DNA of 64,000 bases. Origin: Parvibaculaceae bacterium PLY_AMNH_Bact1 (GTDB taxonomy: Bacteria > Pseudomonadota > Alphaproteobacteria > Parvibaculales > Parvibaculaceae). Below the pieces are notes generated by a model. It was not told where the DNA came from and ran no database searches. It saw nothing but the letters and a program-made list of their open reading frames with translations. Below are positions 18,694-28,149 of this stretch, one piece after another (within the stretch, counting starts at the first letter, position 1; each line of letters starts with the position of its first letter). The DNA lies in the NCBI GenBank assembly GCA_032881465.1, contig CP126168.1, positions 3,659,501 to 3,723,500 on the forward strand, in the 5' to 3' direction. The position numbers and the translations under genes were made by a program.

Positions 18694-19227
18694 ATGTCCA
18701 AGATACGCTTTAAGTTTGCACCCGACAAAGCATGGGACGCAATTCACTGGATGGTAATCCAGCGTCCAAACATAGATCTGCATACCCTGCTCAAAGCATG
18801 CTACTTCGCCGACAAGGAGCATCTTAATAAGCACGGTCGTCCGATTTTTGGGGCTTCGTATCGCGCAATGAAATTTGGTCCAGTGCCGCTCGAAGTATAT
18901 GAGATGGCGAAAGCTGATCCAATTTGGTTGGCTGATTTGGGCCAGGACAGATATCCGTGGGGAATAGATGGATACCGGCTTTCGTTGCTTGATAACGATG
19001 AACCGCTCATGGAATCTCTCAGTGAGTCAGACAGAGAGGAAATAGCGGCGGCGCTAAAGAAGTCTACGGCAATGTCATTTACCCAAAGAACCGCGGCTAC
19101 TCATGGCCGTGATTGGCAGTCTGCCAGACTGGGTATGATGAAATACGAAGATATGATCGAAGAGTCAGATGAGAAGAGTGATCTTGTTGCATATCTCAAA
19201 GAAGCCGCCCCAGTTCTTAGGCTTTAG
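18694..19227 (+). CDS. Panacea domain protein (SocA/DUF4065-like antitoxin)
   Basis: A 177-residue protein of the Panacea (DUF4065) family. Visible marks are LHTLLKACYFADKEHLNKHGRPIFGASYRAMKFGPVP around residues 30-70. In Caulobacter the relative SocA is an adaptor that delivers the toxin SocB to ClpXP; Panacea proteins are now known as antitoxins paired with many unrelated toxins. The next gene starts 5 bp after this stop, the expected partner position. The pair sits alone between a GNAT gene and a small outer-membrane protein gene, and its DNA looks more A+T-rich than its neighbours, suggesting transfer. Confidence 0.85.
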   Translation: MSKIRFKFAPDKAWDAIHWMVIQRPNIDLHTLLKACYFADKEHLNKHGRPIFGASYRAMKFGPVPLEVYEMAKADPIWLADLGQDRYPWGIDGYRLSLLDNDEPLMESLSESDREEIAAALKKSTAMSFTQRTAATHGRDWQSARLGMMKYEDMIEESDEKSDLVAYLKEAAPVLRL

Positions 19228-19232
19228 TCGCT

Positions 19233-19598
19233 TTGCAAATTCAGCCTCTCGAAGTGATCTATGTTCATGATCGTCTGATCAGGCCGCCAGGCCCAAAGAT
19301 GATGGTATGTGTAGAACCTGATTTGGGCTTTTTCTTTCGTATCAATACCAAAGGCCATTGGCCCGCCTCGATCCTGATAGAGAAGAGAAGCAATCCGTTT
19401 TTGCACCATGATAGCTATCTACAGTGCGGTGAGTTGATTGAATTAGATGAATTTGTCGTTGATGAAATTCTTGACGACAAAGGGTTATATGGCGAGCTCG
19501 ATAAGTCATATGCCGCAGCTATCTGTCGAATGCTTGACTCTATCTCCACCATTAGGCAGTCAGACAAAGATGCAATTCGCCAATGTCTTGGCAAATAA
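19233..19598 (+). CDS. Putative toxin partner of the Panacea protein, unassigned family
   Basis: A 121-residue protein starting with TTG 5 bp after the Panacea gene; ATG at 19299 would lose the IYVHDRLIRPPGPK segment, so TTG is preferred. The middle, PASILIEKRSNPFLHHDSYLQCGELIELDEFVV, suggests a small beta-barrel like MazF/PemK toxins by general look only. The C-terminal 45 residues look helical. I cannot name the family. Position in a two-gene unit with a Panacea antitoxin is the main argument for a toxin role. Confidence 0.6.
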   Translation: MQIQPLEVIYVHDRLIRPPGPKMMVCVEPDLGFFFRINTKGHWPASILIEKRSNPFLHHDSYLQCGELIELDEFVVDEILDDKGLYGELDKSYAAAICRMLDSISTIRQSDKDAIRQCLGK

Positions 19599-26140: not shown

Positions 26141-26273
26141 CGCACAAATAAAAGTTATCCTCGTTGATTTTAAGCCGAAATTTCCAATTTATTAGGGGAT
26201 TCACAGTGATGTTAATCAATGCTAGAAGAGTATAAATGGAAAGGCACGTTCCGGGGGCAACGCGTAAACTAGA

Positions 26274-27089
26274 ATGGCAAAAGGTCTGCCTTCATATGAA
26301 AACCCACCGATCATTGAGGTCGTGTGCGGTGTCCAGTTTGAGACGATTTATGACTTGCACGCGCCGTTGACCGGCAAATTCTGGGCGGAAATTGAGGAAG
26401 AATTTCCTACAGTCCAGATGCAGCCAACATTGGAACCTGTGCGGGAGAATTTGTCGGGTGAAGGGTCGCCGCAGACCATGACCCTCGCATTGTCGCCGTT
26501 ACCGCCGCTTCCTCGAATATGGTTTGTCTCATCAAATGAGACCGAGTTGGTACAGCTGCAACCTGACCGGTTTTTGTTTAATTGGAGAAAACAAGATGCG
26601 GCTCCAGTTTATCCAAGATTCGATGCTGTATTTGGAAGATTCATGCAGACCTTCGAGACGTTCGAGGGTTTTCTGGACAAAAACAAAATTGTCCGTCCAA
26701 AGATTAACCAGCTGGAGTTGACCTACATAAATGGCATAGACAGAGAAGAGGTGAACGGGCAAATAAAAAGCGTCCATTCCATTCTTCCAGACTTAGCTTG
26801 GCGCGATTCCGCTTCGCGGCTCCTCCGGGAGCCGGAACATATGGCACTGAATTCAAGCTTTTTATTGCCCGATAGTTTAGGTCGGCTTCATTTGACAGCG
26901 GCCAGTGCACTGAATGTAAAAACCGGGCTACCCGCGTTGCGGCTTGAGCTTACGGCGCGTGGGATTGATGCTAGCGGAGATTCTAGTCTCGAAGAGTGGT
27001 TCGCAATTGCACACGAGTGGATCGTCAAAGCCTTCGCAGATGTAACAGACGAAGAGCTTCAAACAGGACCATGGAACAAACATGAATGA
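26274..27089 (+). CDS. TIGR04255 family protein
   Basis: A 271-residue protein recognised as TIGR04255 by its opening YENPPIIEVVCGVQFE, the RFLFNWRK segment near residue 97, FDAVFGRFMQTFETF, and LELTYIN near 143. The family is sporadic in bacteria and has no known function. It is the first of three overlapping genes placed between glnD and murJ, overlapping the next by 8 bp. The cassette looks more A+T-rich than its surroundings, which points to acquisition. The start has no clear ribosome site. Confidence 0.85.
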   Translation: MAKGLPSYENPPIIEVVCGVQFETIYDLHAPLTGKFWAEIEEEFPTVQMQPTLEPVRENLSGEGSPQTMTLALSPLPPLPRIWFVSSNETELVQLQPDRFLFNWRKQDAAPVYPRFDAVFGRFMQTFETFEGFLDKNKIVRPKINQLELTYINGIDREEVNGQIKSVHSILPDLAWRDSASRLLREPEHMALNSSFLLPDSLGRLHLTAASALNVKTGLPALRLELTARGIDASGDSSLEEWFAIAHEWIVKAFADVTDEELQTGPWNKHE

Positions 27090-27645
27090 TTTTGCGTATA
27101 GTGACGCGTCCTCAGACAGTAGTCTCCAACAAATGACTTGGTCGACAGTGTCCTCCACGTCTGATGTTGGTGTTATTGAGAGGGCGGAAAACGAAAAGGC
27201 CGCCCCGGTCGCTGTGGCTGAAGGTGCTGGCTATTTCTCGTCGTCAGAAATTATGTCAATCAATGATCCTCGTGCACTAATCATCCGTTCTCTTCGGGCC
27301 GACCCTTCGTTGAAGGTGAAGAGTGGTGATGGATCATTTGTTGAAAACGGAGCGATCGAAACGTGCGTTAGGTTCATCGCCAACCTTCCGGTAGACCTAG
27401 CAGAAACAAAGTATGCTCCCGATGGTGAGGGGGGGATTATGTTATTATGGGGTAAGAAGCGCGCTTCTGTTTTGACAATTGAAAAAGATCAGCTTCATTT
27501 TTCAGTTTGGCCTGCTAGCTCCGAAGAGCATTATTTGCATGACATCCAATACAGAAAGTCTACCATTCCGAGTGAAATCCTGATTCGACTAAGAACACAT
27601 CACCAGGCAAAAAGTGACTCCGCCGGACGAACCGATCCTCGATAG
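27082..27645 (+). CDS. Hypothetical protein, second gene of TIGR04255 cassette
   Basis: A 187-residue protein that I cannot assign with confidence. The first 60 residues are Ser/Ala-rich and look disordered. The remainder has CVRFIANLPVDLAETKYAPD followed by GEGGIMLLWGKKRASVLTIE and a strand-rich end. The 'PDG..GI.L.W' pattern resembles one seen in many small accessory bacterial proteins encoded next to another short gene; this is recollection, not a search result. Its ATG overlaps the end of the TIGR04255 gene by 8 bp and its end overlaps the third gene by 32 bp, so the three are translated as a unit. Confidence 0.7.
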   Translation: MNDFAYSDASSDSSLQQMTWSTVSSTSDVGVIERAENEKAAPVAVAEGAGYFSSSEIMSINDPRALIIRSLRADPSLKVKSGDGSFVENGAIETCVRFIANLPVDLAETKYAPDGEGGIMLLWGKKRASVLTIEKDQLHFSVWPASSEEHYLHDIQYRKSTIPSEILIRLRTHHQAKSDSAGRTDPR

Positions 27646-28072
27646 CGACCATGTTAGTCGACTAATCCTTAAGCCACATATGTTGCAGGGAAACGAGCTG
27701 CATCGAGAGAACGTTTTTCAATTCCAAAATCGAAACGGTGGTCGAAAAGAATCCGTTGTTTGGCGCGCAATCGCAATAACATCAACAGATGTGCATGACA
27801 TCGGTCGAGCGAAAGCGGAGAAAGACAACTCCGCGGACCCTAAACGGGGAATTGTGTACGTGGGTTTCCTCTCTGCGGAAGTCAAAGCAATTAGAGATAT
27901 CCAAGGAATGGACGGGCATAGATTCGAGGTTGTTCATTTTCCATCTGAAGGCCGTCATCACGCTCATATTGAGTTGTTGACTGGGCCGGGCGTCTCGCGA
28001 AAACAGTTTAGGAACGCTATAAAGGTGCGTCTCTTTGAGTTGTTCCAGGAAACAGATCTCATCGCGGCGTAA
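27614..28072 (+). CDS. Hypothetical protein, third gene of TIGR04255 cassette
   Basis: A 152-residue protein with GTG start inside the end of the preceding gene (ATG at 27680 is an alternative). Features: VVWRAIAIT, GIVYVGFLSAEVKAIRDIQG, and a His-rich segment FPSEGRHHAHIELLTGPG near residues 107-124 before a helical C-terminus. No signal peptide or membrane segment. The family is not recognised; the clustered His/Glu could be catalytic or metal-binding, but that is only a guess. murJ begins 77 bp downstream. Confidence 0.7.
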   Translation: MTPPDEPILDSDHVSRLILKPHMLQGNELHRENVFQFQNRNGGRKESVVWRAIAITSTDVHDIGRAKAEKDNSADPKRGIVYVGFLSAEVKAIRDIQGMDGHRFEVVHFPSEGRHHAHIELLTGPGVSRKQFRNAIKVRLFELFQETDLIAA

Positions 28073-28149
28073 GTTTTTAAGTATAGTTTTGTCTTTGGCG
28101 CCTTACTCTCAGAGCAATCGAATCGCCGCACCGGAGCTGAGCGCGCCCC

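What the first reader, a model, noticed from the sequence alone, without database searches (positions are those of the whole stretch)
26141..28149. Three-gene TIGR04255 cassette inserted between glnD and murJ, partners unassigned
The sequence shows three overlapping genes (8-bp and 32-bp overlaps) starting with a TIGR04255 protein, followed by two soluble proteins whose families I cannot name. Gene 2 has an 'PDG..GI.L.W' patch after a disordered N-terminus; gene 3 has a His/Glu-rich patch (EGRHHAHIE). As I recall, glnD and murJ are neighbours in related genomes, so this is a lineage-specific insertion, and it looks more A+T-rich than its surroundings. Tight coupling of three unknowns in an accessory slot suggests one system, possibly toxin-antitoxin or anti-phage; that purpose is inference.
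Basis: partly seen in the sequence, partly recalled or inferred. Interest (0 to 1): 0.7.

Follow-up and report, generated by a model that had tools for sequence, protein, structure and literature searches.

The report
Mobile three-gene toxin-antitoxin-like TIGR04255 operon
Three small overlapping genes, inserted between two household genes in this one genome but carried together by many distant bacteria, a plasmid and phage-like contigs, look like an unstudied toxin-antitoxin-type system whose third gene is predicted to have the fold of ADP-ribosyltransferase toxins.

Summary
In detail: three overlapping genes (8 and 32 bp) lie between glnD and murJ. The 6 congeners searched lack them there, and the stretch is the most A+T-rich 2 kb of the window. 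Hosts include Proteobacteria, Planctomycetota and Actinobacteria. The three proteins diverge in step. Two viral-collection contigs hold full triads, one inside a phage tail module. The window's g2 and g3 have no Pfam, NCBIfam or PADLOC match. A relative of g3 gives a confident model (pLDDT 96) whose leading structural neighbours are ADP-ribosyltransferase-fold proteins (Tpt1/KptA, AvrPphF), below the level of proof; R, S and H are invariant. In the core clade g2 ends in a degron-like Ala-Ala, as does the antitoxin CmdA, and codon choice in the overlap indicates selection on that tail. Best reading: a tripartite toxin-antitoxin system resembling CmdTAC, with TIGR04255 in the chaperone's place. 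No function was tested, and the window's own g2 lacks the tail.

The parts
26274..27089 (+). gene 1 (g1): TIGR04255 family protein, 271 aa; model shows a duplicated alpha/beta layout, loosely like TBP and the guanido-kinase C-terminal domain; proposed scaffold, stabiliser or sensor
   Evidence: 79.9 bits, cut-off 30; model pLDDT 87.1; folds, none of them conclusive
27082..27645 (+). gene 2 (g2): 187 aa, variable N-terminus, short core with P..G.I.L.W; proposed antitoxin; a divergent member that lacks the WDGY motif and the Ala-Ala tail of the core clade
   Evidence: leave-window-out profile E 0.09, first among all window ORFs but weak
27614..28072 (+). gene 3 (g3): 152 aa, GTG start; proposed ADP-ribosyltransferase-fold toxin; keeps R16, S47 and H116 (H118 in another alignment) of the family
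   Evidence: leave-window-out profile E 2.3e-5, first among all window ORFs; invariant columns; fold of a relative
27614..27645 (+). 32-bp g2/g3 overlap; overlaps of about 20-32 bp are common in the core clade (start codons chosen by rule), suggesting translational coupling
26141..28103 (.). inserted, A+T-rich segment between glnD and murJ; empty site in 6 of 6 congeners searched

Best explanation
A horizontally moving, three-component toxin-antitoxin-type operon that works like TAC systems such as CmdTAC. Shown: the three genes form a conserved, co-diverging unit found on chromosomes, a plasmid and phage-like contigs. Inferred from the fold of a relative: g3 is an ADP-ribosyltransferase-like toxin that uses NAD+; RNA is the likeliest target, because most of its nearest structural neighbours are RNA enzymes. 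Inferred from the tail, the coupling and the position: g2 is the antitoxin, unstable in the core clade through a C-terminal Ala-Ala degron. Inferred only: g1 (TIGR04255) binds and stabilises g2 or senses a phage product; when g1 is diverted, g2 is degraded and g3 halts the cell, aborting infection or punishing loss of the element.
For: Triad in order in 28 of 28 loci found by g1 (27 genome contigs, 1 viral contig; 3 are the same places as training triads). Independent plasmid triad beside a mobF gene: g2 5.9e-15, g3 9e-8. In 26 further TIGR04255 loci of the phylum sample, g2 is found in 12 (E<=1e-4) and g3 in 9 of those 12 (E<=0.01). Distances correlate: Spearman 0.83-0.86 over 27 loci, 0 of 999 permutations as high. 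g3 relative: pLDDT 95.7; the first 12 rows are 11 Tpt1/KptA entries and AvrPphF ORF2 (Z 4.8-7.1). R, S, P and H invariant in 29 of 29 g3. g2 ends in AA in 19 of 28; the last two Pro codons of g3 in the overlap are CCG in 39 of 40 against 15.7 expected (sd 3.0). CmdA, degraded through ClpP, ends in LAA, and CmdT is an ADP-ribosyltransferase (PMC11618068, passages). Phage-type carriage. One TIGR04255 locus has a PemK/MazF toxin gene two genes downstream.
Against: No toxicity, binding or defence was tested. Foldseek found nothing at E<=0.001 for g3 (best ART-fold row E 2.7), and Z below 8 can be a common arrangement (tool's note). The modelled g3 is a relative; the window's g3 is 24% identical to it, and the core profile alone gives it E 2.7, behind another window ORF. 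The usual ART glutamate is not conserved: H is invariant and the E two residues on is present in 19 of 29. The window's g2 and 9 of the 28 relatives' g2 do not end in AA. g1 has no SecB hit, and its Foldseek matches superpose badly (TM about 0.25). PADLOC has no significant match for any of the three. A g3-like gene occurs without TIGR04255 in view at a contig edge, and another with g1 gone and g2 truncated in a prophage-like contig.
Confidence: 0.5

Rival explanations
1. A three-part phage-exclusion module that is not a toxin-antitoxin system: g1 or g2 senses infection and g3 modifies a phage target, with no self-toxicity to neutralise.
For: A triad lies between tail genes in one viral-collection contig; two further such contigs hold a full and a decayed copy. 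The decayed one keeps the g3 frame intact without g1 and with g2 truncated. A few neighbours match restriction or helicase families (first 25 of 176 families shown).
Against: The selected Ala-Ala tail and the tight g2/g3 overlap fit a labile antitoxin better. Whether the decayed copy is expressed is unknown.
Confidence: 0.2
2. A stability (addiction) cassette of mobile elements without any defence role.
For: Location beside mobF on a plasmid (PLSDB types that plasmid as non-mobilizable); 3 Phage_integrase and 2 Resolvase genes among 144 flanking genes of 27 loci (first 25 of 175 families shown); a gene with Phd and ParE domains sits in the glnD-murJ spacer of another genome of the family.
Against: Recombinase genes are few among the flanks scanned; a third component is more than addiction needs (inference).
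Confidence: 0.15
3. A non-toxic nucleic-acid or protein processing complex: g3 works like Tpt1/KptA (phosphate removal) and g1 is an enzyme of guanido-kinase-like shape.
For: Closest folds of g3 are Tpt1/KptA and of g1 guanido kinases (Z 9.6, 191 aligned, 4.3 A).
Against: Sporadic distribution (17 of 289 class genomes, 30 of 398 phylum genomes have TIGR04255); mostly the C-terminal lobe of Tpt1 is matched; no guanido-kinase active-site feature was shown.
Confidence: 0.1

Closest known systems
CmdTAC (toxin-antitoxin-chaperone, E. coli; PMC11618068, abstract and passages seen)
   Same: Three genes; ADP-ribosyltransferase toxin (there shown, here predicted from a relative's fold); antitoxin with an Ala-Ala C-terminus (here in 19 of 28 relatives, not in the window)
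   Different: Third component is TIGR04255, with no SecB hit; the putative toxin gene comes last; g3 has invariant R, S and H rather than H-Y-[E,D,Q]; no Pfam or PADLOC link
TAC of M. tuberculosis (HigA1-SecB-like chaperone; PMC6377645, abstract and passages seen)
   Same: A third protein works beside an antitoxin and a toxin
   Different: SecB-like chaperone and a ChAD extension on the antitoxin; neither was seen here
Tpt1/KptA tRNA 2'-phosphotransferase and AvrPphF ORF2 (HopF)
   Same: Best structural matches of the g3 relative (rows 1-11: Z 6.1-7.1, 89-96 residues, 2.9-3.8 A)
   Different: 7-12% identity; mostly the C-terminal lobe of Tpt1; AvrPphF is a secreted effector, g3 stands in a three-gene operon
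TIGR04255 (NCBIfam, uncharacterised)
   Same: g1 is a member
   Different: TIGR04255 genes also have other partners: 14 of 26 new phylum loci show no g2 at E<=1e-4

Membership tests
TIGR04255 | score above the curated cut-off of 30 bits | tested here: met
   79.9 bits over residues 8-263
TIGR04255-g2-g3 triad family (defined here) | g2-like and g3-like genes directly downstream of g1 | tested here: met
   same order as in 28 of 28 loci; window g3 E 2.3e-5, g2 only E 0.09, with the window left out
TAC (toxin-antitoxin-chaperone) | SecB-like chaperone | tested here: not met
   by sequence: no SecB hit for g1 in Pfam at E<=5. By structure the question stays open
TAC (toxin-antitoxin-chaperone) | antitoxin with ClpXP-type LAA end or chaperone-addiction extension | tested here: inconclusive
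   AA end in 19 of 28 relatives and under selection; absent in the window; no addiction segment tested
TAC (toxin-antitoxin-chaperone) | toxin neutralised by antitoxin plus third component | not testable with these tools
   needs expression experiments
ADP-ribosyltransferase superfamily | ART fold | tested here: inconclusive
   the 12 best rows are Tpt1/KptA or AvrPphF but Foldseek E is not significant; superfamily labels recalled
ADP-ribosyltransferase superfamily | catalytic triad R-S-E or H-Y-E (recalled) | tested here: inconclusive
   R and S invariant, third invariant residue is H; E two residues later in 19 of 29 rows; no coordinates to superpose
ADP-ribosyltransferase superfamily | NAD+-dependent activity | not testable with these tools
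   needs an enzyme assay
defence systems modelled in PADLOC-DB 2023 | profile match of any of the three proteins | tested here: not met
   only g1 against 'control protein' at E 0.028

The most novel reading that the evidence does not exclude
TIGR04255 is the common third component of a large, unrecognised class of tripartite toxin-antitoxin or abortive-infection systems, a non-SecB counterpart of TAC: one hub fold controls interchangeable antitoxin-toxin pairs (the ART-like g2-g3 pair here, an HTH protein plus a '(S/T)xxC(D/N)' protein, a PemK toxin, a HEPN-looking protein).
Probability: 0.3. Interest if true: 0.82.

Novelty: new variant of a known kind. Interest (0 to 1): 0.62.

Why it matters
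TIGR04255 is a named family without a known function; one full-text search of a library of 5.39 million open papers for that name found none. If the reading is right it gets a role, two nameless protein families become an antitoxin and an ART-like toxin, and a second, unrelated protein is seen in the place that SecB-like chaperones hold in TAC systems. The claim can be tested directly by expression in E. coli K-12.

Tried and rejected
Searches without usable result: the window's g2 and g3 in NCBIfam, Pfam and PADLOC at E<=5; 12 g3 in Pfam (best E 0.055) and NCBIfam (best 0.028); 13 g2 in Pfam (one member against DUF5797 at 0.0017, otherwise >=0.15); profile searches of PDB sequences (best 0.11 for g1, 0.57 for g3, none for g2). 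The window's g1 as a single query in genome contigs found nothing. BFVD gave one weak unnamed match for g3 (E 0.033). With g1 of L086, no match in 50,697 phage records and one in 72,556 plasmids; g3 of L107 had no match in either.

Rejected: 'g3 never occurs without TIGR04255'. In 278 class genomes a g3 profile hit 5, four at triads and one beside a winged-helix-like fragment at a contig edge. The profile is insensitive: it shows no match in G038 and G039, which hold divergent triads (L010, L009), and found only 2 of 398 phylum genomes, both in its training set, while sees nine more g3. So absences say little. Rejected: a strong defence-island claim; among 144 flanking genes of 27 loci the listed restriction and helicase families match one to three genes each, only the first 25 of 176 families are shown, and no control set was run. 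Rejected: a dedicated promoter or terminator; 2 promoter-like sites against 2.2 in shuffles, 4 terminator-like against 2.6. The HEPN-looking third gene of L073 was not confirmed by Pfam. SecB homology of g1 was considered and found no support. The fold of g1 stays unsettled: the two best Foldseek rows (one titled TBP, one a Pol III complex chain) have E 2.5e-3 and 3.3e-3 but rmsd of 10-12 A.

Dropped from counts: L106 left out of the distance test because its g1 match is partial; two TIGR04255 places had no locus and were not classified; 144 of 188 flanking genes were scanned.

Full report
What is there. Three overlapping genes lie between glnD and murJ: g1 26274-27089, g2 27082-27645, g3 27614-28072. 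g1 is a TIGR04255 protein (79.9 bits, cut-off 30). g2 and g3 match nothing in NCBIfam, Pfam or PADLOC. In all 6 congeners searched, glnD and murJ are neighbours with 30-105 nt between aligned ends, and the g1 protein was found in only 2 of 61 genomes: this one and a distant copy (32% identity) in the same family. The insert runs from about 26141 to 28103, with a GC of 0.481 against 0.557 for the window and no 2-kb window as low. No repeat pair was found at its ends.

A conserved triad. The nearest relative in the family has the same three genes (L002; core profiles 8.9e-41 and 1.2e-29). TIGR04255 searches (17 of 289 class genomes; 30 of 398 phylum genomes) gave many divergent copies with the same layout. 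A scan of genome contigs with g1 of three such loci returned 27 loci, and of viral contigs one. Profiles of g2 and g3 built from earlier triads hit the next two genes in 28 of 28, in order (g2 E<=3.1e-9; g3 E<=0.013, the weakest being L106). The hosts are mostly Alphaproteobacteria, with Chromatiaceae, Methylomagnum, Rugamonas, two Planctomycetota and one Actinobacteria MAG. A plasmid of Mycobacterium paragordonae, found separately by tblastn, carries the triad next to a mobF relaxase gene, although PLSDB types it as non-mobilizable (g2 5.9e-15, g3 9e-8 with core profiles). Distances among g1, g2 and g3 rise together (Spearman 0.83-0.86 over 27 loci, 0.51-0.67 in the 22 core loci, 0 of 999 permutations as high), so the genes travel as a unit.

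How well the window fits. With the window left out, a profile of all other triads finds its g3 at E 2.3e-5 and its g2 at E 0.09, each ranked first among the window's ORFs. The profile of the 28 core loci alone does not find g2 and gives g3 E 2.7, second to another ORF. The window is therefore a divergent member: g3 is secure, g2 rests on position and on the P..G.I.L.W pattern.

g3. A model of a core-clade g3 (L095) on 29 sequences has mean pLDDT 95.7. Foldseek against the PDB gives no significant match. The finer aligner, a second look at Foldseek's own list, puts 11 Tpt1/KptA structures and AvrPphF ORF2 in its first 12 rows (Z 4.8-7.1), then at Z 2.5-3.2 an anthrax lethal factor region, an NADase and the RhsP2 toxin, and last a cyanophage protein at 2.0. 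From recalled knowledge all but the last have the ADP-ribosyltransferase fold; that consistency, more than any single score, is the argument. R32, S65, P110 and H117 of the modelled protein are invariant in 29 of 29 sequences, the window's included; in the window R, S and H are R16, S47 and H116 (another alignment pairs H118; S47 also by eye against L022). The usual final glutamate is not conserved (19 of 29), so the chemistry is uncertain.

g2. The core consensus is a GWDGY motif followed by P.IVPG..GDLQ.EWH. In 19 of 28 loci g2 ends in Ala-Ala. The tail lies in the g2/g3 overlap, so it could be a by-product of g3's Pro-Pro. The codons speak against that: the last two Pro codons of g3 in the overlap are CCG in 39 of 40 (20 loci), against 15.7 expected from each locus's own codon use (sd 3.0), including loci of 41-48% GC. 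Read by eye, L080, L093, L094 and L096 carry changes that are silent in g2 but alter g3, and L097 keeps the tail without any overlap. RNA-level selection on the overlap is not excluded. In CmdTAC the antitoxin CmdA ends in LAA, is degraded through ClpP and is protected by its chaperone (PMC11618068, passages). The window's g2 ends in DPR, so this feature belongs to the core clade.

g1. The window's g1 model (pLDDT 87.1) is a duplicated alpha/beta fold. Foldseek's best rows are a 178-residue chain of a Pol III complex (TBP by my reading) and a TBP-TAF1 structure, at E 2.5e-3 and 3.3e-3 with poor superposition; the finer aligner prefers guanido kinases (Z 9.6, 191 residues, 4.3 A, 10% identity). 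This suggests a binding or scaffold role and does not prove one. TIGR04255 also heads other layouts (ORF reading): an HTH-like protein and/or a protein with a (S/T)xxC(D/N) motif, a peptidase-like neighbour, and in one locus a PemK/MazF toxin two genes downstream (PF02452 1.1e-18). In the 26 new loci of the phylum sample, g2 is found in 12 and g3 in 9 of those.

Mobility. In a viral-collection contig (L107) the triad sits between a gene with a weak NlpC/P60 match (E 0.0044, below cut-off) and a 1007-aa tail gene (Phage-tail_3 3e-26), with a DUF2460 gene upstream. A second such contig (L117) has a full triad. A third (L116) has g3, the end of g2 and no g1, between genes that look like an integrase and a repressor by eye. 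The glnD-murJ spacer of another genome of the family holds a gene with Phd and ParE domains.

Reading. Together this points to a tripartite toxin-antitoxin-type system with g3 as ART-like toxin, g2 as antitoxin and g1 in the role that SecB-like chaperones have in TAC. The unit and its mobility are shown; the fold of g3 is a good but unproven prediction from a relative; the roles are inference. If right, it works like CmdTAC, but it is not filed as a TAC member, since the SecB component is not met by sequence.

Noticed in passing
window 18694-19598: A SocA/Panacea antitoxin-domain gene (PF13274, 1.4e-13) followed 5 bp later by a 121-aa ORF (19233-19598, TTG) with no Pfam hit, in a second low-GC stretch of the window: a candidate PanAT-type toxin-antitoxin pair.
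   Followed up: partly
L005, L011, L020, L056, L057, L060, L063, L067, L071; looser in L059, L065, L079: TIGR04255 genes near a 190-310 aa protein with a (S/T)xxC(D/N) motif; none of the four scanned (L011, L057, L059, L071) has a Pfam match at E<=0.01. In L005, L056, L059, L065 and L079 the gene between looks HTH-like by eye; L006 shows only such an HTH gene.
   Followed up: partly
L003, L004, L055: TIGR04255 near a 214-233 aa protein with a G(D/K)GLTCATF motif that looks cysteine-peptidase-like; no Pfam hit for the two scanned, L004 and L055.
   Followed up: no
L058:2511-2858: PemK/MazF toxin gene (PF02452 1.1e-18) two genes downstream of a TIGR04255 gene, with a 95-aa ORF between.
   Followed up: partly
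L073:544-1495: TIGR04255 followed by a 188-aa protein and a 125-aa protein that looks like HEPN by eye; not confirmed by Pfam.
   Followed up: partly
L017 and L072 third genes: A different third protein after TIGR04255; the L017 copy matches the wider g3 profile weakly (E 1.5e-5 in a two-sequence search, 0.0036 with the core profile), hinting at a remote g3 branch.
   Followed up: partly
L040:745-1314: Single ORF with a Phd/YefM antitoxin domain and a ParE-type toxin domain in the glnD-murJ spacer of another genome of the family.
   Followed up: yes
L113:72-560: g3-like gene (profile E 1.7e-9) at a contig edge, preceded by a fragment resembling a winged-helix regulator rather than g2.
   Followed up: partly
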